A stretch of DNA of 36,199 nt from Thermoleophilaceae bacterium (GTDB taxonomy: Bacteria; Actinomycetota; Thermoleophilia; Solirubrobacterales; Thermoleophilaceae), in NCBI GenBank assembly GCA_025937135.1, contig JAICRZ010000008.1, positions 1-36,199 on the forward strand, in the 5' to 3' direction. Every line of letters starts with the position of its first letter. Position 1 is the stretch's first letter. Below the pieces are notes generated by a model. That model ran no database searches. It worked only from the letters and a program-made list of their open reading frames with translations, and had not been told where the DNA came from. Made by a program: the position numbers and the translations under genes. This document shows, piece by piece, positions 9,155 to 21,461 of the stretch.

Positions 9155-10039
9155 CTATGCCGGCAACGCCTTGGTCTGAAGGCGGTCAGGGCTGACCCCG
9201 ACCACGTTCCACGCCAGCCCGACCCGCTCCATCCCCGCGATCACGAGCCCCGCGATGTCGATCTCCGTGCGCCGGAGGCCGTGCTGGGCGGAGGTGGGAA
9301 AGGCGTGGTGGTTGTTGTGCCACGCCTCGCCCAGCGACGGAAGCGCCAGCCAGAACACGTTTCGCGACTGGTCCCCGGTGAGGAATCGCCGCCGGCCGGT
9401 GAAGTGGCAGATCGAGTTGATCGAGAACGTCATGTGGTGCAGGAAGAACACGCGTACGAGCCCGCCCCAGACCAGGGCGGTCAGCGCGCCCCACCAGGAC
9501 CCCGAGATCAGCAGGCCGAGGCCGGCGGGGATGAGGAACGTGAGCACGGCGAACAGCGGGAACAGATCCGAGATCAGATTCATGCCGCGGTCGTCCTTGA
9601 GGTCGCCGAGGTAGCGCTCGCGGTCCTGCTGGCGCTCGCCGAAGAGCACCCAGCCGAGGTGCGCGTGTGCGAGGCCCCTGAGCGCGCCGCGCAGGCCGTC
9701 GCCGTATCCGTGGGGAGAGTGCGGGTCGCCCGACGCGTCGGAGAAGGCGTGGTGCTTGCGGTGGTGCGCGACCCAGGGGATCACCGACCCCTCCAGCGCG
9801 AGCGAGCCGAGGATCGCCCACATGTAGCGCAGGCCGCGGTAGGTCTCGAACGCGCGGTGCGTGAGCAGACGGTGATAGCCGACGGCTATGCCCAGGCCGC
9901 TGAGGGTGTAGAGCGAAGCCATGATCGCGAGGTCTGCGACCGACACGCCGTGCCCCCAGAACAGCCAGACGGCGAGCGGCAGCCCGAGAAAGGGCAGCCC
10001 GACGCCGACGAAGTGGAATACCTGCTGGTAGCGCCGCAT
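9155..10039 (-). CDS. Acyl-CoA/acyl-lipid delta-9-type fatty acid desaturase
   Basis: A 294-residue integral membrane di-iron desaturase. All three histidine boxes are present: GYHRLLTHRAF, WVAHHRKHHAFSD and EAWHNNHHAFP. They lie between hydrophobic segments in the order typical of stearoyl-CoA desaturase-like enzymes. It introduces a double bond in a fatty acyl chain and so adjusts membrane fluidity; an electron donor must come from elsewhere, because no cytochrome b5 or ferredoxin domain is fused. The ATG at 10039 has AGGAGG nine bases upstream. A TTG two codons earlier would sit only three bases from that site. The DMT transporter gene follows in the same direction after 10 nt. Confidence 0.93.
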   Translation of the reverse strand: MRRYQQVFHFVGVGLPFLGLPLAVWLFWGHGVSVADLAIMASLYTLSGLGIAVGYHRLLTHRAFETYRGLRYMWAILGSLALEGSVIPWVAHHRKHHAFSDASGDPHSPHGYGDGLRGALRGLAHAHLGWVLFGERQQDRERYLGDLKDDRGMNLISDLFPLFAVLTFLIPAGLGLLISGSWWGALTALVWGGLVRVFFLHHMTFSINSICHFTGRRRFLTGDQSRNVFWLALPSLGEAWHNNHHAFPTSAQHGLRRTEIDIAGLVIAGMERVGLAWNVVGVSPDRLQTKALPA

Positions 10040-10291
10040 GATCAACGGCCTCCTGGTCTCCAGCCCGACGGACGGCGTCCTTCGGACGTGAATCCCCTTG
10101 AGGGACGGGCGGAAGCCAATCGCGGTGGCGAGTCTCTCTGCGACTGGTCAGGGTGAGTCAGCGACCGTCCACGACGGAGGCTACTCCTTCTCCGACGCCG
10201 CGAGTCCTCCGAGGTACGCCGTCGCCACGGCTTCGCGTCGCCGGAAGGGCGATGCGCGCAGCCAGTGAACCGATCGCCGCCGCGCGGCGCA

Positions 10292-10325
10292 GTACCCCTA
10301 CAGCGACAACGGATCAAAGGGGTAC
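10292..10325 (+). promoter_or_regulatory. Inverted repeat that includes the ribosome binding site of the first ferritin-like gene
   Basis: GTACCCCT at 10292-10299 is perfectly complementary to AGGGGTAC at 10318-10325, with an 18-nt loop. The right arm contains the AAAGGGG ribosome binding site seven bases before the ATG at 10330. If transcribed, the stem would hide that site. It could also be a DNA operator. The 290-base gap between the divergent desaturase and this gene holds no other clear gene. Confidence 0.4.
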
Positions 10326-10329
10326 AGAC

Positions 10330-11007
10330 ATGTCTGACTCGACCCACGGGCTCCCTCGCATCGAGGAGCTCGACCGGGACGGCGCGCTGCGCGAGGCGGC
10401 CGACGCCGTCGACGGCGACACGCGTGCGAAGTTCTTCATGAAGTCCGGCGCGTTCGTCGCCGGCGGAATGGCGCTCGGCGCGCTGCCGGTCGGCCTGGCG
10501 CTCGGGCAGGGCGGAACGCCGAAGTCCGACGTGAAGATCCTCAACTTCGCGCTGACGCTCGAGTACCTCGAGTCGTCGTTCTACGCGGAGGCCGTGAGCA
10601 AGGGTGCGCTGAAGGGCGAGATCGCCACGTTCGCGCAGGTCGTGTCACAGCACGAGTCGGCTCACGTCGCCGCCCTCCAGAAGGCGCTCGGCAGTGCCGC
10701 CACGAAGAAGCCGTCCTTCGACTTCAAGGGCACCACGAGCAACAGCAAGCAGTTCGTGAAGACGGCGATCACGCTCGAGGACACGGGCGTCGCCGCCTAC
10801 GAGGGCCAGGCGCCCAACATCAAGACCCCGGCGGTGCTGATGGCCGCCGGCTCGATCCTGCCCGTCGAGGCGCGCCACGCGGCATGGATCCGCGACATCA
10901 ACGGCCGCGGCCACGGCTCGTTGCCGGCGCCGGCTGCCTTCAACCCGGCGATGTCGATGGCCCAGGTCCTGAGCGCGGTGAAGTCCACCGGCTTCATCAA
11001 GGGCTAG
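10330..11007 (+). CDS. Ferritin-like domain protein 1 (Ferritin_2 family)
   Basis: A 225-residue protein of the ferritin-like Ferritin_2 (PF13668) type. The first 40 residues are hydrophilic. Then RAKFFMKSGAFVAGGMALGA leads into a hydrophobic stretch that may be a Tat-like signal or anchor, although only one arginine is present. The four-helix part carries candidate metal ligands in LTLEYLESSFY, QHESAHVAAL, ITLEDTG and PVEARHAAW. A di-metal site and a role in metal or oxidative stress handling are plausible, but the substrate is not known. The ATG at 10330 has AAAGGGG seven bases upstream. The next gene is a close paralogue 41 nt downstream, indicating tandem duplication. Confidence 0.9.
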   Translation: MSDSTHGLPRIEELDRDGALREAADAVDGDTRAKFFMKSGAFVAGGMALGALPVGLALGQGGTPKSDVKILNFALTLEYLESSFYAEAVSKGALKGEIATFAQVVSQHESAHVAALQKALGSAATKKPSFDFKGTTSNSKQFVKTAITLEDTGVAAYEGQAPNIKTPAVLMAAGSILPVEARHAAWIRDINGRGHGSLPAPAAFNPAMSMAQVLSAVKSTGFIKG

Positions 11008-11048
11008 CCCGGACCCGTCAAGAGCTTTCTGAAAGGACTGACCCAACA

Positions 11049-11780
11049 ATGTCTGACATGAACTACGAGCGCCCGACGCTCGAGGAACTCGACAAGGACG
11101 GCGCCATCCGCGAGTACGGCGAGAAGGTCGGCGGCAACACGCGCGCGGCGTTCGTCCGCAAGGCCGGTGCCTTCGCGGCCGGCGGCTTCGCGCTCGGCTC
11201 GCTGCCGATCTCGCTGGCGCTGGGCCAGGGTGGCGTGCCGAAGGGCGACATCGACATCCTGAACTACGCCCTGACGCTCGAGTACCTCGAGGCGGCCTTC
11301 TACAAGGAGGCGGTCAGCAAGGGCGCGCTGAGCGGCGAGACGAAGATCTTCGCCGGCGTGGTCGCCCAGCACGAGGCCGCGCACGTGGCGGCGCTGAAGA
11401 AGACGCTGGGCAGCAAGGCCGTCAAGAAGCCGAGCTTCGACTTCAAGGGCACGACCGCCAGCCAGGCGACGTTCCAGAAGACCGCGCTGCTGCTGGAGGA
11501 CACAGGCGTCAAGGCGTATCTCGGGCAGGCCGGCAACATCAAGGCCACGCCCGTGCTGAAGGCCGCCGCGTCGATCCTGCCGGTCGAGGCGCGCCATGCC
11601 GCCTGGATGGCGGACATCATCGGCAAGGGGACCAACCCCTCGCCGGCCCCGGCCGCGTTCCAGCCGTCGGCGACGATGAGCGAGGTGCTCGCAGCGGTGA
11701 AGAGCACCGGCTTCATCACGAACCTGCCGGCCGCGGCCGCCGGCTCCGCCACCTCCGGCACGCCGAGCATGACCGGCTGA
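11049..11780 (+). CDS. Ferritin-like domain protein 2 (tandem paralogue)
   Basis: A 243-residue paralogue of the preceding protein with the same order of parts. A hydrophilic N-terminus (RPTLEELDKDGAIREYGEKV) is followed by RAAFVRKAGAFAAGGFALG and a hydrophobic segment, then the ferritin-like helices with LTLEYLEAAFY, QHEAAHVAAL, LLLEDTGVKAY and PVEARHAAW. It differs by an extra 18-residue Ala/Ser/Gly/Thr-rich tail. The ATG at 11049 follows AAAGGA at a long spacing of 11 nt, and the two genes are probably cotranscribed. A strong hairpin terminator follows at 11798-11827. The export or anchoring of this family is uncertain, because the hydrophobic segment starts about 40 residues in. Confidence 0.9.
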   Translation: MSDMNYERPTLEELDKDGAIREYGEKVGGNTRAAFVRKAGAFAAGGFALGSLPISLALGQGGVPKGDIDILNYALTLEYLEAAFYKEAVSKGALSGETKIFAGVVAQHEAAHVAALKKTLGSKAVKKPSFDFKGTTASQATFQKTALLLEDTGVKAYLGQAGNIKATPVLKAAASILPVEARHAAWMADIIGKGTNPSPAPAAFQPSATMSEVLAAVKSTGFITNLPAAAAGSATSGTPSMTG

Positions 11781-11797
11781 CGGAGGCCCGTCAGGGA

Positions 11798-11827
11798 CCC
11801 CGGCGCCACCCCCCTCCGGCGCCGGGG
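11798..11827 (+). terminator. Hairpin terminator after the ferritin-like pair
   Basis: A perfect 10-bp stem CCCCGGCGCC/GGCGCCGGGG with a 10-nt loop lies 17 nt after the stop codon. It is followed by a C/T-rich stretch without a real T-run, as is common in very GC-rich actinobacteria. Confidence 0.65.
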
Positions 11828-11842
11828 CTCCCGTCTCTTCCC

Positions 11843-12637
11843 ATGACCAGGCTGAAGCCACGCAACCCGAAGCAGTCCGCGGCGTTCCTCGCGATCGTGC
11901 TCGTGGCGATGGCGGCCGGCCTGTTCGCGGGCCCGGCGCTGTTCGGCGGCAAGAAGGCGCAGGACGGGCTGTCGGGCGCAGCGAACAGCCCGCACGAGTT
12001 CGACCTGACGGCGGCCGAGGCGCGCGGCCACAACGGGGTGCTCGTGGGCCGCGCCAAGGCACGCAGCGTCGCGGTCTACCGAACACCGCACTCGCGCAAG
12101 CCGTACCGGAGGATCGCGGCACGCACGCTCGACGGGCACCGCCTCCCGCTCGTGTTCCTCATCAAGGCGCGCCGCGGCGGCTGGGTGAACGCGTACCTCC
12201 CGACCCGCCCCAACCTCAGCACCGGCTTCATCCGCACGCGCGACCTCAGGCTCGCCACCGACTGGTACCGGATGGAGGTGCAGCTCCGTCGGCACCGGCT
12301 GGTCGTCTGGCGCGGGGGTAACAAGATCGTGGACGACCCGATCGCCGTGGGCAAGGCGGTCTCCCCCACGCCGACCGGCCACTACTACGTGACCGACCTG
12401 ATCCGGCCGCCGGACCCGCGCGGCTTCTACGGCCCCTACGCGTTCGGCCTGTCGGCCCACTCCAAGGTGTTCACGACCTTCGAGGGCGGCGACGGGCAGG
12501 TGGGCATCCACGGCACCAACAACCCGTCGGTGATCGGCGGCAACGCCAGCCACGGCTGCATCCGGGTCCGCAACCGCACGATCAGGAAGCTCGCCAAGCA
12601 GGTCCCGATCGGGACACCGGTGCGGATCGAGCGCTGA
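11843..12637 (+). CDS. L,D-transpeptidase (YkuD domain)
   Basis: A 264-residue membrane-anchored cell-wall enzyme. A positively charged start and one hydrophobic helix (about 12-32) act as signal or anchor. A linker with an SH3-like part (about 60-135) is followed by the YkuD catalytic domain (about 142-264) with H223 in GIHGT and the active-site motif SHGCIRV (S236-H237-G238-C239). Such enzymes form 3-3 crosslinks in peptidoglycan, or attach proteins to it, outside the membrane. The ATG at 11843 follows the terminator of the ferritin-like pair by 15 nt, so it should have its own promoter inside or beyond that short space. No lipobox is seen. Confidence 0.93.
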   Translation: MTRLKPRNPKQSAAFLAIVLVAMAAGLFAGPALFGGKKAQDGLSGAANSPHEFDLTAAEARGHNGVLVGRAKARSVAVYRTPHSRKPYRRIAARTLDGHRLPLVFLIKARRGGWVNAYLPTRPNLSTGFIRTRDLRLATDWYRMEVQLRRHRLVVWRGGNKIVDDPIAVGKAVSPTPTGHYYVTDLIRPPDPRGFYGPYAFGLSAHSKVFTTFEGGDGQVGIHGTNNPSVIGGNASHGCIRVRNRTIRKLAKQVPIGTPVRIER

Positions 12638-12680
12638 GCCCCGCGGGGTTCGCCCGGCCGCCGGCGGGTAACAGAACGCC

Positions 12681-13751
12681 ATGTCCAGCCTGCCGCTCGG
12701 TCTCCTGCTGGTCATCTTCGCGGCGGCTGCGGTGGCCATCTGGATTGCCGGGATCCAGCTCTCCAAGCAGACCGACGTGCTGTCGACGCGGCTGCACCTC
12801 GGGGCGGCGCTCGGCGGGCTGATCATGCTGGCGATCGCCACGAACCTGCCGGAGATCGCGATCACGGTGAGCGCAGCCCTGTCCGGCGACGTCGGCGTGG
12901 CGGTGGGCAACATCCTCGGCGGGATCGCGATTCAGACCGTGGTCCTGGTCGCGCTCGACGCCTTCGGCGTGCGCGGCGAGCGCCCGCTGACGTACAGAGC
13001 GGCATCGCTCGTGCTCGTGCTCGAGGCAGCGCTCGTGGCGGCCGTGCTGGCGGTGGTGGTGGCCGGCACGCAGATCCCCGCGGACGTGATCCTGTGGCGG
13101 TTCGCGCCCGGATCGGTGCTCATCGCGGTGATCTGGATCGTCGGGCTGCTGCTGCTCCAGCGCGCCGGCAAATCGCTGCCGTGGCACGAGTCCGGGCAGG
13201 CGCCGGACGGCCAGGAGCACCCGCGCGGCCACCGGCGGCACGCGACCGAGCAGCAGGAGCGGGCGAAGGGGACGAGCACCGGACGCTCGGCCGCGATCTT
13301 CGGCGTCGCGGCGATCGTCACGCTGGTCGCGGGCGTGATCCTCGAGCGCAGCGGCGAGGCCGCCGCCGGCGACGTCGGCCTGTCGGGCGTGCTCTTCGGA
13401 GCGACGGTGCTGGCCGCCGCGACGTCGCTGCCGGAGCTCTCGACCGGGCTCGCGTCGGTCAAGACCGGCGACTACCAGCTCGCGATGAGCGACATATTCG
13501 GCGGCAACGCCTTCTTGCCGGTCCTCTTCCTGGTGGCGACGCTGCTGTCCGGCAAGGCGGTCCTTCCGCAAGCGCACGCGAGCGACATCTACCTCACGGC
13601 CGTCGGCATGCTGCTGACGCTCGTCTACGCGGCCGGCCTCGTGTTCAGGCCGCAGCGCCGGATCTTCCGGATGGGGATCGACTCCCTCGTCGTGCTCGTG
13701 CTGTACCTGCTCGGTGTGGCAGGGCTGTTCGCCATCGCGAACGCCGGCTGA
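12681..13751 (+). CDS. Sodium/calcium exchanger family cation antiporter
   Basis: A 356-residue integral membrane protein of the Ca2+:cation antiporter superfamily. The two inverted alpha repeats are clear: the first around 43-85 (LIMLAIATNLPEIAITVSAA, then GNILGGI) and the second around 235-280 (TVLAAATSLPELSTGLASVK, then SDIFGGNAF). Each keeps the acidic residue used for ion binding (NLPE, SLPE). A charged cytoplasmic loop (about 170-210) rich in His, Arg and Gln lies between the halves. It probably exchanges Ca2+ or another cation for Na+ or H+. It is separated by 43 nt from the preceding transpeptidase gene and runs toward the second desaturase on the same strand. Confidence 0.92.
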   Translation: MSSLPLGLLLVIFAAAAVAIWIAGIQLSKQTDVLSTRLHLGAALGGLIMLAIATNLPEIAITVSAALSGDVGVAVGNILGGIAIQTVVLVALDAFGVRGERPLTYRAASLVLVLEAALVAAVLAVVVAGTQIPADVILWRFAPGSVLIAVIWIVGLLLLQRAGKSLPWHESGQAPDGQEHPRGHRRHATEQQERAKGTSTGRSAAIFGVAAIVTLVAGVILERSGEAAAGDVGLSGVLFGATVLAAATSLPELSTGLASVKTGDYQLAMSDIFGGNAFLPVLFLVATLLSGKAVLPQAHASDIYLTAVGMLLTLVYAAGLVFRPQRRIFRMGIDSLVVLVLYLLGVAGLFAIANAG

Positions 13752-13763
13752 CGCTGATCCGAA

Positions 13764-14795
13764 GTGCTCGCGGGAGCGAAAGCTTCCGTAGTGCAGACCA
13801 CGAGCGTCCCCCATCGCAAGAGCTGGAAGCAGGACCTCGCCCCCTACCTGGAGATCGACCGGCGGCGCAGCCTCGGGCAGATCGCGAGCGTCGTGCTGCC
13901 CTACGTCGGCGTCTGGGTGGTCGCCGCGATCGTGCACCCGAGCGCGTTGATCGGAGTCGGTCTCGGCCTGGTCGCGACGGTGTTCCTCCTGCTCTTCACG
14001 CCCTACCGCTGGTGGCAGCGCGAGCACAGCCTCCACCACGCGCACACCGGCAACCTCGACGCCCGCGGCCCCGGCGAGATCTACACGATGACCCTCGCGG
14101 AATACGAGAGCGCCTCGCGCATCCGCCGGCTCGGCTACCGCGCCTACCGCAACCCGCTGCTGATGCTGCTGCTCGGGCCGAGCCTCGTCTTCCTCTTCGA
14201 GCGCCGCTTCCCGCAGCGCGGCATGACGCGGCGGATCCTCTTCAGCGTGGTGCTCACCAACGTCGCGCTCGCCGCGTGGGCGACCGGCTGGAGCGCGCTG
14301 GTCGGCTGGGGCCCCTACCTGCTGATCCAGGGCACGACGCTGGTGGCGGGCGGCGCCGTGGCCGCGTGGATGCTCTACGTCCAGCACCAGTACGAGGACA
14401 CCTACTACCGCGCGGCCGGCGACTGGCAGTTCGAGCTCGCGGCGCTCCAGGGCAGCTCATTCCTCGCGCTGCCGCGCGTGCTGGCCTGGGCGGTCGGCAA
14501 CGCCAACTACCACCACGTCCATCACCTCAGCGCGAAGATCCCGAACTACCGGCTGCGCGCCGCGCACGAGCAGCAGCCGATGTTCGCCCGCACTCCCGTG
14601 GTCACCGTCCGCGGCAGCGTCGCAGCGCTGCGCCTGAAGTTGTGGGACGAGGAACGCGAGTGCCTGGTGCGCTTCCCGTATCGAAGCGCGAACGTTCGGG
14701 TAGAAGCCCCCGCATGTCCGAACACGCGGTCCACTCCCACGGCCTGGTCCACGACTCGATCAAGCGCTCGCGCGAGGGTGTCCGAGCAGTCCTGA
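13764..14795 (+). CDS. Fatty acid desaturase-like protein lacking the first histidine box
   Basis: A 343-residue membrane protein of the omega-6/DesA-like desaturase group. The second histidine box (HSLHHAHTGNLDARG, H88-H92) and third box (NYHHVHHLSAKIPNY) are intact, as is the FYVQHQFE-like motif (LYVQHQYEDTYY). The region that should hold the first box, HDCGH, is absent: the hydrophobic stretch at 61-77 runs directly into FTPYRWWQREH, where relatives have roughly 30 more residues. No other reading frame there encodes the missing box. Loss of those iron ligands should abolish ordinary desaturase activity. The start may be the GTG at 13764 or at 13791. The last 27 residues run into the next gene in another frame and look non-native. 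Confidence 0.85.
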   Translation: MLAGAKASVVQTTSVPHRKSWKQDLAPYLEIDRRRSLGQIASVVLPYVGVWVVAAIVHPSALIGVGLGLVATVFLLLFTPYRWWQREHSLHHAHTGNLDARGPGEIYTMTLAEYESASRIRRLGYRAYRNPLLMLLLGPSLVFLFERRFPQRGMTRRILFSVVLTNVALAAWATGWSALVGWGPYLLIQGTTLVAGGAVAAWMLYVQHQYEDTYYRAAGDWQFELAALQGSSFLALPRVLAWAVGNANYHHVHHLSAKIPNYRLRAAHEQQPMFARTPVVTVRGSVAALRLKLWDEERECLVRFPYRSANVRVEAPACPNTRSTPTAWSTTRSSARARVSEQS

Positions 14796-15352
14796 CGTCG
14801 CTCGCGGTCCTCGCGGCCGCGGCCATCGCCCAGACGCTGATCTTCGTCCTGTCGGGCAGCGTCGCGCTACTCGCCGACCTGATCCACAACTTCGGCGACG
14901 CGCTGACCGCGGTGCCGCTGGGGATCGCCTTCCTGCTGCGCTCGGAGCGGGCCGAGCGCGGTGCCGGGCTGTTCGTGGTGGCGGCCATCTTCATCAGCGC
15001 CTGCGTCGCGGCGGTCGAGGCGATCAGCCGCCTGATCCACCGCACCCCGCCCACGCACCTGTGGGCGCTGGCGGCGGCGGGCGCGATCGGCTACACGGGC
15101 AACTACGTGGCCGCGCGCGTGCGCACGCGCGCGGGAAAGCGGCTCGCGAGCCCGGCTCTCGTCGCCGACGGCAACCACGCGCGCGCCGACGCGTACGTAT
15201 CGCTGGCGGTGATCGCCTCAGCCGCGGTCGTGGCGATAGGCGCGCCGATCGCCGACCCGCTCATCGGCCTGGCCATCACCGTCGTGATCCTGCGCATCAC
15301 CTGGCAGTCGTGGCTTACCGTGCGCGGCCACGACCATCACCACGTCCACTGA
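14714..15352 (+). CDS. Short cation diffusion facilitator (CDF) metal exporter
   Basis: A 212-residue protein of the CDF family, shorter than the usual 300 residues because the C-terminal cytoplasmic metal-binding domain is missing. Hydrophobic segments are interspersed with the intramembrane metal site, LADLIHNFGDALTAVPLG in helix two and DGNHARADAYVSLAVI in helix five. Histidine-rich ends (HAVHSH and GHDHHHVH) could bind metal. Zn2+ is the most likely substrate for an H-N-F-x-D arrangement, but Fe, Co or Mn cannot be excluded. The ATG at 14714 gives the start seen in this subgroup (HSHGLVHDSIKRSREG). It overlaps the desaturase frame by 82 nt and converges on the ZIP gene with a 10-nt gap. 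Confidence 0.9.
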   Translation: MSEHAVHSHGLVHDSIKRSREGVRAVLTSLAVLAAAAIAQTLIFVLSGSVALLADLIHNFGDALTAVPLGIAFLLRSERAERGAGLFVVAAIFISACVAAVEAISRLIHRTPPTHLWALAAAGAIGYTGNYVAARVRTRAGKRLASPALVADGNHARADAYVSLAVIASAAVVAIGAPIADPLIGLAITVVILRITWQSWLTVRGHDHHHVH

Positions 15353-15362
15353 TGCGACCGGC

Positions 15363-16220
15363 TCAGCCGCCGCCGTAGGCCACGACGAGGTCGGTCACGA
15401 TCCCCACCATGAAGCCGGCCGAGACCAGCCACAGCCCCAGCTCGCGGTGCCCGAAGCGGCGCATCCCGTTCCAGACCTCGCCGATCACGTAGAGGATCGC
15501 GCCGCCCGCGACGGCGTAGAAGAGCAGCTCGAGCGGCTCCGAGGTGACGTTGTAGCCGACGATCGAGCCGAGGAACGTGGGCCCGCCGCCGATCAGCCCG
15601 ACCGCTGCCAGCCAGCGCCACGACGGGCGTACGTCGCCGAGCGGACCGACGATGCCGAAGCCCTCGGTGGCGTTGTGCAGGGCGAAGCCGATGATCAGAA
15701 CCGTTGCCAGGCCGATCTCGCCGGTGCTGGCGGAGACGCCGATCGCGAGGCCCTCGGCGAAGTTGTGGATCCCGATCGCGATCGCGATGACGAGCGACGT
15801 CTGGAGCGCCCGTCCGCGCGCGGCATCGCGCTCGGCCCCGAGCCGTGCGGCCGTCTCAGCGTCGAGGACGTCGGTGGAGCCTCCCGCCACGGGTGGCCGC
15901 GTCGGGCCCTTCGGCCGCGCGCGCTGAAGCGTGGCGAGGCCCGCGGTGCCGGCCGCGAAGCCGACCCCGAGCATGACCGTGAGCCCGAGCGGGCGGCCGA
16001 ACCCGTCGTGGCCGTCCTTGAACGACTCGACGGCGTGCTCGACGATCTCGAACGCGTGCTCGAGCACGTCGACGAACAGGAAGGCCAGCACGCCCACCGC
16101 GAACATCGACAGCGCCACGCGCATGCGCACGCTCACGATCTCCATGCGGGCGAATGGCAGGCCCAGGTAGATGGTGAAGCCGGCCAGGGCTCCGAGCAGG
16201 GCTGTCTCCGCAAAGCTCAC
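15363..16220 (-). CDS. ZIP-family metal transporter
   Basis: A 285-residue integral membrane protein of the ZIP family. Helix four carries IAIAIGIHNFAEGLAIGVS and helix five IIGFALHNATEGFGIVGPL, which together form the metal-binding site (HNFAEG and HNATEG). A His/Glu-containing loop (EHAFEIVEHAVESFKDGHDG) follows helix two. It probably moves Zn2+, Fe2+ or Mn2+ into the cytoplasm. The GTG at 16220 is chosen because a promoter-like TAATAT and a palindromic operator lie just upstream, leaving almost no leader. It converges with the CDF exporter, giving an importer/exporter pair. It also follows the propeller operon on the same strand but appears separately controlled. Confidence 0.92.
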   Translation of the reverse strand: MSFAETALLGALAGFTIYLGLPFARMEIVSVRMRVALSMFAVGVLAFLFVDVLEHAFEIVEHAVESFKDGHDGFGRPLGLTVMLGVGFAAGTAGLATLQRARPKGPTRPPVAGGSTDVLDAETAARLGAERDAARGRALQTSLVIAIAIGIHNFAEGLAIGVSASTGEIGLATVLIIGFALHNATEGFGIVGPLGDVRPSWRWLAAVGLIGGGPTFLGSIVGYNVTSEPLELLFYAVAGGAILYVIGEVWNGMRRFGHRELGLWLVSAGFMVGIVTDLVVAYGGG

Positions 16221-16229
16221 GCCGCAGGG

Positions 16230-16246
16230 ATATTAGGGCACCCTAA
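16230..16246 (-). promoter_or_regulatory. DtxR/MntR-like palindromic operator and -10 element of the ZIP gene
   Basis: TTAGGGTGCCCTAA (16246 to 16233 on the - strand) is a perfect inverted repeat with 6-bp arms. It merges with TAATAT (16235 to 16230), a good -10 element placed so that transcription would start within a few bases of the GTG at 16220. The TTAGG...CCTAA form resembles sites of iron- or manganese-responsive DtxR/IdeR/MntR repressors, whose full sites are usually somewhat longer. Metal-dependent repression of metal uptake is the natural reading. Confidence 0.6.
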
Positions 16247-16266
16247 CCGCGGGCGCGCCGCCGCTG

Positions 16267-17415
16267 TCAGCGAAACACGCCGGTGTGGCCCAGCGAGTAG
16301 CGCCCGGGCTGCGGGTAGACGCACAGCCCGTGCGGCCCCAATCCGACCTTCACGCGCCGGATCAGCCGGCCCGTGCGCGTCGAGATCGCGTAGACGACGC
16401 CGTCGTAGCGCCCGGACAGCCAGAGCACGCTGCCGTCGGCGGAGACGCCGCCCATGTCCGGGCTGCCGCCGCCGGGGATCCGCCACTTGCGCACGGCCTT
16501 GCGCGTGGCGAAGTCGATCAGCGACACCGATCCCTCGTCGCGGTTGGAGACGTACAGGTAGCGTGCGTCGCGGCTGGCGTACAGGCCGTGCGCGCCGCGG
16601 CCGGTGGGGATGAAGCCACGCTTGCGCATCGAGCGCGCGCCGATCTCCCACACCCCGTTCGAGATCATGTCCGCCACGTAGAAGATGCGCCCGTCGGGTG
16701 ACAGCTTCACGTCCTGCGGCTTGGCCGCAGGCGACAGCGCGAACGTCTTCACCACACGCTCGTGCGCGACGTCCACCACGATCATCCGGCCGTTGAACTC
16801 GCAGCTCGCGAGCATCAGGCGCCCGTCGGCCGTGAAGTCCGCGTGGTTCACGCCCTCGCAGCCGGGCACCTCGAGCGTGTGGTGGAGGCGCATCGTGTGC
16901 GCATCGCGGAAGTCGATCCGGTGGAGCGCTTCGGCCATCACCACCGCGTAGTGGCCGTCGGGCGTGAAGTAGAGGTTGTAGGGGTCGGTGACCGGGACGG
17001 CCTTGCCCGGCTTGCCGTTGCGCGGGTTGATCGGCGTGAGCTCGTTGCCGCGGTCGTCGTTGACCCAGAGCGTCTTCAGGTCGTACGACGGCACCACGTG
17101 CTGCGGCAGCTGCGCGACCGAGAAGCGCCGGACGATCCTGTAGGTGTGCGGGTCGATCTCGTCGACCGTGTTCGACTGCGTGTTGGGCACGTAGATGAGC
17201 GGCCGGTCATGTCGCACCGCAGGGCTGAGGCGGTTGGCCGCGTCGGCGGCGTAGACGTTGCGCCGGTCGAGGAGCGGCGGCACGCGATAGCCGGAGAAGC
17301 GCTTCGACCGTTGTGCATGGTGGGTGACGTGCAATTTCGCCGTCCTGCCGCCGCCGCTGCATCCCGCCACGGCCACGGCCACGAGGGCGATCGCCACCAG
17401 CACGAGCCGACTCAT
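16267..17415 (-). CDS. YVTN/YncE-like beta-propeller lipoprotein
   Basis: A 382-residue exported lipoprotein. The N-terminus has a signal peptide ending in a lipobox (VAVAGC, with C19 as the lipidated residue) followed by a Gly/Ser linker. The rest is a seven-bladed-type propeller of roughly 40-residue repeats with signatures such as RPLIYVPNTQSNTVDEID, GRIFYVADMISNGVWEI, ARYLYVSNRDEGSVSLID and SVLWLSGRYDGVVYAIS. Proteins of this type bind ligands or partner proteins outside the membrane; no catalytic residues can be assigned. It is the last gene of the regulator-kinase-Kelch operon, overlapping the Kelch gene by 4 nt, which suggests a signal-sensing or target role with that two-component system. 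Confidence 0.88.
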   Translation of the reverse strand: MSRLVLVAIALVAVAVAGCSGGGRTAKLHVTHHAQRSKRFSGYRVPPLLDRRNVYAADAANRLSPAVRHDRPLIYVPNTQSNTVDEIDPHTYRIVRRFSVAQLPQHVVPSYDLKTLWVNDDRGNELTPINPRNGKPGKAVPVTDPYNLYFTPDGHYAVVMAEALHRIDFRDAHTMRLHHTLEVPGCEGVNHADFTADGRLMLASCEFNGRMIVVDVAHERVVKTFALSPAAKPQDVKLSPDGRIFYVADMISNGVWEIGARSMRKRGFIPTGRGAHGLYASRDARYLYVSNRDEGSVSLIDFATRKAVRKWRIPGGGSPDMGGVSADGSVLWLSGRYDGVVYAISTRTGRLIRRVKVGLGPHGLCVYPQPGRYSLGHTGVFR

Positions 17416-18443
17416 CGCGGCGACAGCAGCCAGACGTCGTCGCGAACGCGGCCGGCGAAGTCGCGCCCACCCGCCAGGAGGATGCCGCGCCCGCTCGCCG
17501 CGGCGCCCGTGTCCGACACCGGCACCGGGAGACGCCCGGCGCGCGTGACGCGGCGCGCGCCCGGCGCGAGCGCGAGGATCGCGTCGGTCTGAGAGTCGAG
17601 CGCCGAGCCGCGACCCCCGATCACGTAGACGGTCGACCCGAGCGCTGCCGCCGCGGCATGCGTGAGCGGGCGCGGCAGCGAGGCGAGGCGCGTGACCCTG
17701 CGCGTCGCGGGATCGAAGCCATAGACGGAGCGGCTGGCCGTGACGCCGCTGGTGCCGCCCGCGATCACGAGCCTGCCGCCTGCGGTGGCCGCGACGGCCG
17801 CGTAGCGAAGCGGCTTCGGCAGCCGGCCCACCACGCGCGCCCGGCTATCGCCTGGCCGCCACGCCTGGATCGTCGCGAGCGGGACGCTGCCGGTGTAGCC
17901 ACCCACGACGTAGACCGTCCCGTCGATCGAGGCGGCGCCCACGTCGGACGCCGGCGCGGCGATCCGGCCGACCTGGCGCGCGACGCCGCCGGGACGCAGC
18001 TCGAGGATCGCGTCGTGCGACGGCTCGCCGCCGCCGAAGAAGTACGAGCGCCCGCCCACGGTGGTAGCGGCCGCGTCGTGCACCGGCGCGGGCAGCGACC
18101 CGTCGCCGCGTGCACCGCTCGGACCCGCCAGCCACAGCTCGGCCAGGGACGTGTCGGCGCTGCTCAGGCCGCCGGCCAGGAGGGCGCGTCCGCCGGGCAG
18201 CGGCGCGACCGCGGGCAGCTGGACCGGAGCCGGAAGCCGCGCCACACGGCTCGCCGCGAGCGTGGCCGGGCGCGCGGGAGCGGGCGCCACCCTTGGCGCG
18301 GGTGCCGCGGCGCTGCGCGCCGCCCCGGCGGAGTGATCGCCTCCCCCGCGCGTGGCCAGCACGAGAGCCAGCAACGCAACGGCCGCAGCCGCCACCGCTG
18401 CGGCGGCGAAGGGATGGCGCAGTCGTGGTCGTGCGGAGCTCAC
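17412..18443 (-). CDS. Membrane-anchored Kelch-repeat propeller protein
   Basis: A 343-residue protein with one N-terminal hydrophobic helix (about 12-31) acting as anchor or signal and an Ala/Pro-rich linker to about 65. A Kelch-type beta-propeller follows, with repeated blades such as GRSYFFGGGEPSHDAILEL, GTVYVVGGYTGSVPLATIQA, GRLVIAGGTSGVTASRSVYG, STVYVIGGRGSALDSQTDAI and GILLAGGRDFAGRVRDDVWL. It probably sits outside the membrane. It starts 12 nt after the histidine kinase stop and overlaps the propeller lipoprotein by 4 nt, so all four genes are likely one transcript. Its partner or ligand is unknown. Confidence 0.87.
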   Translation of the reverse strand: MSSARPRLRHPFAAAAVAAAAVALLALVLATRGGGDHSAGAARSAAAPAPRVAPAPARPATLAASRVARLPAPVQLPAVAPLPGGRALLAGGLSSADTSLAELWLAGPSGARGDGSLPAPVHDAAATTVGGRSYFFGGGEPSHDAILELRPGGVARQVGRIAAPASDVGAASIDGTVYVVGGYTGSVPLATIQAWRPGDSRARVVGRLPKPLRYAAVAATAGGRLVIAGGTSGVTASRSVYGFDPATRRVTRLASLPRPLTHAAAAALGSTVYVIGGRGSALDSQTDAILALAPGARRVTRAGRLPVPVSDTGAAASGRGILLAGGRDFAGRVRDDVWLLSPR

Positions 18444-18455
18444 CGCCGGCCCACG

Positions 18456-19817
18456 TTACGGCGCGCGCCTGAACGCCACCTGAGCGCGTCGCGCTCCCGG
18501 CAGCTTCAGCCCGAAGCAGCCACCCGGCCCGTCCTCCACCACCACGTCGCCGCCGCAGCTACGGGCCAGCCGGCGTGCGAGCGGCAGGCCCAGGCCGGCG
18601 CCGCCGCTGCTGCTCACGCCCGGGGCGAACAGCGACTCGGGATCGCGCCCGTCGAGGCCGGGTCCGTCGTCGCGCACCGACACCGTCACGTCGTCGCCGC
18701 CGCCGCTCGCGACGGCGACCTCGACGCGGCTGCGCGCGTGCCGCAGCGCGTTCTCGAGGAGCGGATACAGCGCCTGGGTGACCACGTCCGGATCCGCGTC
18801 CACGACCACGCCCGGGCCGCCTTCCGCGAGCCGGACGTCGACGTCGCGGGAGCGCGCGGAGTTCGCGACCGCGGCGAGCGCCTCGCGCACCGCGGGGAGC
18901 GGGTCGCAGGACCGCGGCGGGCTCACGTCCGCCTCCATCCGGGCGCTCGAGAGCAGCGTCTCGATCACCGTCTGCATCCTGCTGCTGCTCTCGACCACGC
19001 GCTGGAACGCGGTGCGCGACTCCTCGTCGAGGTCATGGCGGGCGAGCGCCAGCTCGGCCTCACCGCGCAGACCGGTCAACGGTGTGCGCAGCTCGTGCGC
19101 CAGCTCGGCCGAGAAGCGCTGCTCGTGGCGCAGCACAGCCTCGATCCGGCGCAGCAGCCCGTCGAACGTGGCCGCCAGCGTGGTCAGCTCGTCGCGCGGC
19201 TCACCGAGGTGGAAGCGCCGGTGCAGGTCGTGCTCGCTCCAGTCGGCCGCCCTCGCGGTCATCTCCGCGATGCGCCCGAGCGCCGAGCGCACCGACCAGC
19301 GAACCGCGATCGCCGCGCCCAGCAGCAGCAGGAGGCTGAGGATGGCGGTGCCCACGAGCGCGATCTGCCGCGTGTGCTCGTACGGGACGAGCGAGACGCC
19401 GACGACGACGGTGCCACGACGCACGCCGGCGGCGTCGCGGACGGGGACCGCGCGCAGCCGGATGTCGTCGCCCAGCGTCCGCTCGGTCGGTCGCGGCACG
19501 CCGGCCAGGCCCGCGACTGCCCGCGCCTGCGCGGCCGGCGCCGCCGCCGGCTTCTCGACCACGCGCGAGCCGGCGAGCACCCACGTGTCGCGGTCGAGCA
19601 GGGCGTCGCTCGGACCCTCGACCGCGCGCAGCCGGCCATGGCTGAGGTCGAGGGTGGCGAGCTGCGCCGCGGCGCGGCTGCGCAGGACCGATGACGCGTC
19701 GGCGTCGAGCCGATGCGCCAGCAGCACGTTGAAGAGGATGCTGAGCGCCGCCAGCCCGACGGCCAGGACGGCGACCGCGGCGAGCGTCACGCGGCCGCGC
19801 AGGGTCAGCCGGCTCAT
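18456..19817 (-). CDS. Sensor histidine kinase of an OmpR-type two-component system
   Basis: A 453-residue membrane kinase. Helix one is at about 8-34 and helix two at about 152-178, flanking an extracytoplasmic sensor of about 115 residues. A HAMP domain (about 172-230) leads to the dimerisation domain with the phosphorylated H241 (SAELAHELRTPLTG). The ATPase domain has N356 in the N box (LLENALRHAR), G1 at 383-387 (DDGPG) and G2 at 405-410 (GGAGLGLPLA). The start at 19817 forms an ATGA overlap with the response regulator stop. An upstream extension of the frame would lie wholly inside that regulator gene and is rejected. The signal is unknown. Confidence 0.93.
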   Translation of the reverse strand: MSRLTLRGRVTLAAVAVLAVGLAALSILFNVLLAHRLDADASSVLRSRAAAQLATLDLSHGRLRAVEGPSDALLDRDTWVLAGSRVVEKPAAAPAAQARAVAGLAGVPRPTERTLGDDIRLRAVPVRDAAGVRRGTVVVGVSLVPYEHTRQIALVGTAILSLLLLLGAAIAVRWSVRSALGRIAEMTARAADWSEHDLHRRFHLGEPRDELTTLAATFDGLLRRIEAVLRHEQRFSAELAHELRTPLTGLRGEAELALARHDLDEESRTAFQRVVESSSRMQTVIETLLSSARMEADVSPPRSCDPLPAVREALAAVANSARSRDVDVRLAEGGPGVVVDADPDVVTQALYPLLENALRHARSRVEVAVASGGGDDVTVSVRDDGPGLDGRDPESLFAPGVSSSGGAGLGLPLARRLARSCGGDVVVEDGPGGCFGLKLPGARRAQVAFRRAP

Positions 19818-20485
19818 CGCAGCACGTAGCCGACGCCGCGGACCGTCTCGAGCGCCTCGGCGCTCGCCACCTCGGCGAGCTTGCGCCGCAGACGGACCAC
19901 GTAGGCGTCGATCGTGTTGTCGTGCACTATCGCGCCGTCGGGCCACGCCGCAGAGCGCAGCTCCGCGCGCCGGACGACCTGCCCCGGCCGCGCGGCCAGC
20001 GCGGCCAACATCCGGAACTCGGTCGGCGTGAGCTGCACGGTGCGCTCGCCGTTGCGGACGGCGTGCACGACCGGATCGACCTCGAGGCCGCCCGCCGCCG
20101 GCTCGGCCGCCGTCTCCGCCCGCCGGCGCGCGGCCACGCGGATCCGCGCGATCAGCTCGGCCACGGCGAACGGCTTCGTCACGTAGTCGTCGGCGCCCAC
20201 GTGGAAGCCCGACAGCCGGTCGGTGAGCGCGCTGCGCGCCGTTAGGAAGATCACCGGGCTGCTCACGGAGTTCACGCGCAGCGCCTGGCAGACGTCGCGC
20301 CCGTCGGCGTCCGGCAGCCCGATGTCGAGCACGAGCAGGTCCGGCGGCGCAGCCGAGAAGACCTCGACCGCCTCGCGGCCGGACGCTGTCACGCGCACCG
20401 CGAAGCCCTCGCGCCGCAGCGCGCGCTCGAGCACGGAGCGCAGCTGAGCGTCGTCCTCACAGATTCCGACCTGGAGCGTTTCCAC
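19814..20485 (-). CDS. OmpR-family response regulator
   Basis: A 223-residue DNA-binding regulator. The receiver domain has the acidic pair (E10, D11, D12), the phosphorylated D54 (LLVLDIGLP), T82 and K104. A winged-helix domain follows with LTPTEFRMLAALAARPG and DNTIDAYVVRLRRKL. The GTG at 20485 starts directly before the conserved first strand; the longer reading adds 13 residues with no support. It heads the operon regulator-kinase-Kelch-propeller lipoprotein and is divergent from the COG4705 membrane protein across 82 bp. An 11-bp-spaced direct repeat in that gap is the obvious candidate for its binding site, controlling both directions. Confidence 0.93.
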   Translation of the reverse strand: METLQVGICEDDAQLRSVLERALRREGFAVRVTASGREAVEVFSAAPPDLLVLDIGLPDADGRDVCQALRVNSVSSPVIFLTARSALTDRLSGFHVGADDYVTKPFAVAELIARIRVAARRRAETAAEPAAGGLEVDPVVHAVRNGERTVQLTPTEFRMLAALAARPGQVVRRAELRSAAWPDGAIVHDNTIDAYVVRLRRKLAEVASAEALETVRGVGYVLR

Positions 20486-20520
20486 GCCGCCAATGATGTC
20501 GCCCCGGCGGCCGGGGCCCC

Positions 20521-20548
20521 ACAACCGTTCAGGTACGGCTCAGGTTGT
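20521..20548. promoter_or_regulatory. Direct repeat with 11-bp spacing between regulator and COG4705 gene
   Basis: TTCAGGT at 20528-20534 and CTCAGGT at 20539-20545 agree at six of seven positions and are exactly 11 bp apart, one helical turn, the layout used by dimers of OmpR/PhoB-family regulators. The pair is enclosed by an inverted repeat ACAACC (20521-20526) and GGTTGT (20543-20548). It lies 20 bp before the ATG of the COG4705 gene and about 36 bp before the regulator start. Confidence 0.5.
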
Positions 20549-20567
20549 TCCAGCCACCCTGCGGCCC

Positions 20568-21461
20568 ATGTCCACACTCACATCACGCCTCACGGCGGCC
20601 GACTCCCCCGCGCGGCGCATGTTCAACAAGGTCCCGGAAGTCACCCTCTACTTCTGGGTCATCAAGATCATGTGCACGACGATCGGCGAGACCGCTGCCG
20701 ACTATCTCAACGACAACCTCGGCTTCGGCCTGACCAACACCACCTACGTCGCCGGGGCGCTGTTGATCGCGCTGCTGGTCGCGCAGTTCAGGCTGCGCCG
20801 GTATGTGCCACCCGTCTACTGGGCGGTGGTCGTGGTGATCAGCGTCTTCGGCACGCTCATCACCGACAACCTCACCGACGGCTACAACGTCCCGCTGACC
20901 ACCACCACACCGATCTTCGCGGTCGTCCTGGCGGTCGTATTCGCGATCTGGTGGGGCTTCGAGCGCACGCTCTCGATCCACTCGATCGGCACCACCCGGC
21001 GCGAGGGCTTCTACTGGCTCGCGATCCTGTTCACGTTCGCCCTCGGCACCGCCGCGGGCGACCTCACCGCCGAGAAGGCCGACCTCGGCTACGGCGTGTC
21101 GATCGCGATCTTCGGCGGCGTCATCGCCCTGGTCGCATTCGCGCACTACGCGCTGAAGCTGAACGCGGTGCTGTCGTTCTGGCTCGCGTACATCCTCACG
21201 CGCCCGCTCGGCGCGTCGATCGGCGACTTCATGTCGCAGAAGAGCCACAAGTACGGCGGGCTCGGGCTCGGCACCACGGGGACGAGCTACATCTTCCTCG
21301 GCTGCATCATCGCGCTGGTCGCCTTCCTCAGCATCACCAAGCGCGACCAGACGCCGCCCGAGCTGGTCCTGGCAGACGAGGCAGCGGCGGGCGGGCGCCC
21401 GCACGAGCTTCATCTGCGGCTGCCGCACTCTCCGGCCGACCCCCTCGGCCAGGAGGGCTGA
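20568..21461 (+). CDS. COG4705-type multi-pass membrane protein
   Basis: A 297-residue protein with about eight hydrophobic segments. The N-terminal KVPEVTLYFWVIKIMCTTIG and the following GETAADYLNDNLGFGL are hallmarks of the COG4705 family of uncharacterised membrane-anchored proteins. Internal similarity is visible: GETAADYLNDN, FGTLITDNLTDGY, GTAAGDLTAEKADLGYG and PLGASIGDFMSQK all place acidic residues in or near membrane segments, which suits a cation transporter. No function is established here. The ATG at 20568 directly precedes the family start. Divergent pairing with a two-component system suggests induction by the signal that system senses. A bidirectional terminator separates it from the convergent DUF6351 gene. 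Confidence 0.85.
   Translation: MSTLTSRLTAADSPARRMFNKVPEVTLYFWVIKIMCTTIGETAADYLNDNLGFGLTNTTYVAGALLIALLVAQFRLRRYVPPVYWAVVVVISVFGTLITDNLTDGYNVPLTTTTPIFAVVLAVVFAIWWGFERTLSIHSIGTTRREGFYWLAILFTFALGTAAGDLTAEKADLGYGVSIAIFGGVIALVAFAHYALKLNAVLSFWLAYILTRPLGASIGDFMSQKSHKYGGLGLGTTGTSYIFLGCIIALVAFLSITKRDQTPPELVLADEAAAGGRPHELHLRLPHSPADPLGQEG

What the first reader, a model, noticed from the sequence alone, without database searches (positions are those of the whole stretch)
13962..14055. Desaturase homologue that has lost the first histidine box
The second and third His boxes and most of the chain are intact, but the stretch that should carry HDCGH plus about 30 residues is missing cleanly and in frame, between a hydrophobic segment and FTPYRWWQREH. 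No other frame holds it. Either this is an in-frame deletion allele or the protein has been repurposed. The gene otherwise shows no decay, which favours selection.
Basis: partly seen in the sequence, partly recalled or inferred. Interest (0 to 1): 0.6.

Follow-up and report, generated by a model that had tools for sequence, protein, structure and literature searches.

The report
Desaturase gene missing catalytic segment
A lipid-desaturase gene in an uncultured actinobacterium has lost a clean 93-base in-frame piece that carries two of its iron-binding histidines, which most likely makes it a recently broken (or mis-assembled) copy of an ordinary enzyme and not a new kind of protein.

Summary
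The PF00487 desaturase gene at 13764-14795 (+) lacks exactly 93 nt (31 codons) at 13988/13989. The same-genus ortholog carries VRMYSFFHDLAHNSMLASRASNSRWGYALGF there, including the first histidine box. All 36 homologs collected here keep box 1; only this sequence lacks it. The segment is nowhere else in the window, the bin shows no second allele, and the junction 21-mer is unique in the bin.

Substitutions on this branch (29 nonsynonymous, 26 synonymous) match the intact sister branch (41 and 40), so there is no sign of relaxed or changed constraint. That is expected if the deletion is recent; it also fits retained function or an assembly error.

A model shows the deletion cutting transmembrane helix 2 from 26 to 13 residues and removing two ligands of the di-iron site. 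Four other desaturase genes in the bin keep box 1.

Best reading: a recent in-frame deletion, perhaps between short near-repeats, leaving a dead or nearly dead desaturase allele. Assembly or strain-chimera error is the main rival: there is one MAG contig and no reads. Repurposing is not excluded but has no positive evidence.

The parts
13764..14795 (+). PF00487 membrane desaturase homologue, 343 aa from GTG 13764 (GTG 13791 is another possible start); lacks His box 1
13988..13989 (+). deletion junction: 93 nt (31 codons, including HDLAH in the same-genus ortholog) absent between CTC and CTG; near-repeat TCgTGC/TCcTGC at the two breaks in the ortholog
   Evidence: junction 21-mer unique in the bin
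14025..14039 (+). His box 2 (HSLHH), intact
14385..14387 (+). conserved His of QHQYED, intact
14511..14525 (+). His box 3 (HHVHH), intact
9155..10045 (-). second PF00487 protein of the window, with HRLLTH / HRKHH / HNNHH boxes all present

Best explanation
A genuine, evolutionarily recent 93-bp in-frame deletion in an otherwise ordinary acyl-lipid-type desaturase gene, perhaps by slippage or recombination between two near-identical 6-mers 93 nt apart. It removed the second half of transmembrane helix 2, the whole first histidine box and the helix after it. Shown: the sequence difference, and the intact state in every relative examined. Inferred: the protein can no longer hold the normal di-iron centre and is a catalytically dead or nearly dead allele on its way to a pseudogene, with the cell covered by its other desaturase genes.
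For: Exact 93-nt, codon-clean gap against the same-genus ortholog and two further subfamily members. 36 of 36 homologs keep both box-1 histidines. The best-scoring listed PF00487 matches across 232 genomes of the order all begin at profile position 9 or earlier, whereas the window's begins at 48. Near-repeat TCgTGC/TCcTGC at the breaks; at least 5/6 identity at 93-nt spacing holds for 0.8-1.6% of positions in the three intact genes. Substitution pattern unchanged on the branch, as expected for a young lesion. The model shortens the TM2 helix from 49-74 to 49-61. Four other desaturase genes in the bin keep box 1: C180 HDCAH, window 9155-10045 HRLLTH, C150 HRLFTH, C263 HNVLH. Literature: the conserved His clusters coordinate the di-iron centre (PMC9825965); in the eight-His desaturase TMEM189 each of the eight histidines is essential (PMC7149458).
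Against: No read data; one contig of a MAG (82% complete, 5.3% contaminated) is the only witness. No further inactivating change is present, so there is no independent sign of pseudogenisation. Loss of activity is inferred, not measured.
Confidence: 0.6

Rival explanations
1. Assembly or strain-chimera artefact: the population carries the intact gene, and the contig drops 93 bp because of a local assembly error or a minority-strain path.
For: The contig belongs to a fragmented, partly contaminated MAG. The rest of the gene evolves like an intact one. No relative shares the deletion.
Against: The junction is codon-clean and in frame (1/3 by chance). The junction 21-mer occurs once in the bin, even with two mismatches allowed. 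The only shared sequence at the break is about 6 bp, shorter than usual assembler k-mers (general knowledge). No second allele or orphan fragment of the segment is in the bin.
Confidence: 0.23
2. Repurposed pseudo-desaturase: the protein lost catalysis but is kept for another role, for example lipid or metal binding, or as a partner of an active desaturase.
For: Remaining invariant residues are kept as well as in the intact ortholog (42 of 44 in both). dN/dS against the ortholog is 0.30. The gene sits between a Na/Ca-exchanger-type gene and a cation-efflux gene, with a ZIP-like gene next.
Against: The same statistics follow if the deletion is young: one within about the last third of the branch would not show. 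There is only one example. The neighbouring transporter genes are not conserved around the orthologs.
Confidence: 0.12
3. The protein keeps some oxidase or desaturase activity with a rearranged metal site.
For: Box 2, box 3 and the extra His remain. AlphaFold still builds the fold with mean pLDDT 87.
Against: The first-box histidines are ligands of the centre, and the histidines are essential in tested relatives. No other His replaces them. The model's confidence is driven by the alignment of intact relatives.
Confidence: 0.05

Closest known systems
Membrane acyl-lipid desaturases of PF00487 (Bacillus DesA type, NCBIfam NF052548)
   Same: Matches NF052548 over profile positions 96-325 and PF00487 over 48-236; boxes 2 and 3 and overall fold shared
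   Different: Box 1 and half of TM2 missing; score 278 against the NF052548 cut-off of 500, so not an equivalog
Intact orthologs in the same genus (G001:C120, L017) and in Solirubrobacter soli DSM 22325 (L007)
   Same: 81% (C-terminal part) and 68% (best segment) identical; same subfamily motif FTPYRWWQR.HSLHHA
   Different: They contain the 31-residue box-1 segment
Desaturase-fold chain of the chloroplast Orf2971/Ycf2-FtsHi motor complexes (PDB 8xks_K, 8xqw_M)
   Same: Best fold matches of both the deleted and the intact model (E 1.7e-6 and 4.3e-8)
   Different: 16% sequence identity; no functional link implied, and the intact ortholog matches it better

Membership tests
PF00487 FA_desaturase (homology) | Significant profile match above the gathering score | tested here: met
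   73.5 bits against a cut-off of 29.7, profile positions 48-236
Functional membrane di-iron desaturase | His box 1, HX3-4H | tested here: not met
   Absent; present in 36 of 36 homologs
Functional membrane di-iron desaturase | His box 2, HX2-3HH | tested here: met
   HSLHH, residues 88-92
Functional membrane di-iron desaturase | His box 3, (H/Q)X2-3HH | tested here: met
   HHVHH, residues 250-254
Functional membrane di-iron desaturase | Full-length TM2 that leads into box 1 | tested here: not met
   Helix 49-61 in the model against 49-74 in the intact ortholog; models only
Functional membrane di-iron desaturase | Desaturase activity | not testable with these tools
   Needs expression and lipid analysis
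NF052548 DesA delta-5 desaturase equivalog | Score above the curated cut-off | tested here: not met
   277.7 bits against 500
Pseudogene | Further inactivating mutations or relaxed constraint | tested here: not met
   Frame open, nonsynonymous/synonymous ratio as in the intact sister branch; uninformative if the deletion is recent

The most novel reading that the evidence does not exclude
A fixed, selectively maintained pseudo-desaturase that has shed its first histidine box and half of TM2 and acts non-catalytically, for example as a regulatory or scaffolding partner of an active desaturase or as a metal-site protein among cation transporters.
Probability: 0.1. Interest if true: 0.5.

Novelty: new member of a known kind. 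Interest (0 to 1): 0.15.

Why it matters
Mainly as a caution: the gene is named a desaturase by profile search, yet it lacks two metal ligands, so lipid-phenotype predictions from this genome should not count it. If the deletion proved fixed and maintained, it would be a natural test of whether a membrane di-iron fold can be kept without its active site.

Tried and rejected
Segment displaced to another place or frame: a six-frame motif scan of the window found nothing in context, and own-genome searches with the intact ortholog as protein and as DNA found no copy of the segment. Deletion shared by relatives: searches of family, order, class and phylum found only intact subfamily members apart from the window. 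Repeat-induced assembly collapse: junction 21-mer unique with up to 2 mismatches. Relaxed constraint: not seen. Conserved metal-transport operon: the exchanger's ortholog in the same-genus genome lies on another contig (C111, L067) with neither the desaturase nor the cation-efflux gene in the 12 kb fetched, and the desaturase ortholog's own neighbourhood differs. Profile search of solved-structure sequences gave no hit. A literature search for the chloroplast motor's desaturase-fold subunit found nothing in the held library, nor did searches for a described desaturase lacking box 1 turn up a clear precedent by title and abstract.

Full report
Observation. The window is the whole contig C108 of a 2.97-Mb, 273-contig bin, 82% complete and 5.3% contaminated. 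A same-order genome (G223) carries the related gene on a contig of the same length (736,579 bases) as the Solirubrobacter soli DSM 22325 contig that holds L007, so the bin belongs to the order of Solirubrobacter (inference). The ORF 13764-14795 (+) encodes 343 aa. Pfam FA_desaturase matches only from profile position 48, while the other desaturase genes in the bin match from position 4 to 10.

The gap. Against the same-genus ortholog (G001:C120, L017; 81% identical in the C-terminal part), S. soli (L007) and a further same-order genome (L018), the window protein lacks 31 residues in one block. At codon level the window has GTG TTC CTC CTG CTC TTC ACG where the ortholog has GTC TTC CTC, then 93 nt, then CTG CTC TTC ACG. 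The missing peptide in the ortholog is VRMYSFFHDLAHNSMLASRASNSRWGYALGF. In an alignment of 37 proteins both box-1 histidines are present in all 36 others, and the window is the only exception; the histidines of boxes 2 and 3 and the H of QHQYED are intact.

Is it elsewhere? A six-frame scan of the window finds no such box in context. Searching the whole bin with the intact ortholog as protein or as DNA returns only the two flanking pieces on C108, a distinct paralog on C180 and, for DNA, short weak matches that are not this segment. The junction 21-mer is unique in the bin, even with two mismatches allowed. So there is no second allele and no obvious repeat that would explain an assembly collapse. 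Reads were not available, so an error or a strain chimera cannot be ruled out.

How it arose. The ortholog has TCGTGC at the left break and TCCTGC at the right break, 93 nt apart. Six-mers at that spacing with at least 5/6 identity make up 0.8-1.6% of positions in the three intact genes. This is suggestive of deletion between short near-repeats, but the comparison uses extant relatives in place of the true ancestor and is not a strong test.

Selection. Over 306 aligned codons dN/dS between window and ortholog is 0.30, at the low end of the six pairs (0.30-0.46). Polarised with S. soli, the window branch has 29 nonsynonymous and 26 synonymous changes and the intact sister branch 41 and 40 (Fisher p = 0.86). 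If the whole window branch had been neutral, about 77 nonsynonymous changes would be expected; with 30% of it neutral, about 42; 29 were seen. So either the deletion is no older than roughly the last third of the branch, or constraint continued, or it is an artefact. Intactness of the rest of the gene is therefore not evidence for a new function. Being in frame has a prior chance of 1/3.

Structure. AlphaFold with 33 aligned sequences gives mean pLDDT 86.9 for the window protein and 88.3 for the ortholog. The ortholog's helix 49-74 (TM2, which leads into box 1) becomes 49-61, and the helix 82-95 is absent. Both models find the same desaturase-fold PDB chains, the deleted one less well (E 1.7e-6 against 4.3e-8). 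The prediction leans on intact relatives and does not show that the deleted protein folds. In membrane desaturases the three histidine clusters bind the di-iron centre (PMC9825965). In a Euglena desaturase the residues between the two box-1 histidines can be varied, and its authors propose that those two histidines bind the metal (PMC3423564). In TMEM189, a different eight-histidine family, each histidine is essential (PMC7149458). Loss of catalysis is thus the expected result, by inference.

Context. Neighbours are two ferritin-like genes, an L,D-transpeptidase, a Na/Ca-exchanger-type gene, a cation-efflux gene and a ZIP-like gene. The same-genus ortholog also has ferritin-like genes within about 2 kb and shares a 2.9-kb stretch matching window 18496-21427, but not the exchanger or efflux genes; the exchanger's ortholog lies on another contig there. 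The cation-transporter setting is therefore not a conserved operon. Four other desaturase genes in the bin keep box 1: C180 HDCAH, window 9155-10045 HRLLTH, C150 HRLFTH and C263 HNVLH, so loss of this one could be tolerated. The subfamily itself is rare: 4 of 232 genomes of the order, counting the window.

Verdict. The most economical reading is a recent in-frame deletion that gives a dead or nearly dead desaturase allele, with an assembly or strain artefact second and repurposing a distant third.

Noticed in passing
window 14714-14795: The desaturase ORF runs about 80 nt into the start of the cation-efflux gene (ATG 14714), whereas in S. soli the ORF ends soon after RFP. The C-terminal tail of the window protein has no counterpart in relatives, so either the stop was lost or the efflux gene starts later.
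   Followed up: partly
window 10153-11780: Two neighbouring, slightly overlapping Ferritin_2 (PF13668) ORFs about 67% identical to each other; a similar pair lies near the desaturase ortholog in the same-genus genome (L046:7252-8768).
   Followed up: partly
L005:343-1923 (G000:C263): A 526-aa desaturase with an insertion between two PF00487 pieces (profile 10-112 and 163-251), with first box HNVLH.
   Followed up: no
L046:5111-12513 against window 10153-21427: Neighbourhoods with shuffled gene order: desaturase and ferritin-like pair change order and strand, while the block matching window 18496-21427 is conserved at 82% DNA identity.
   Followed up: partly
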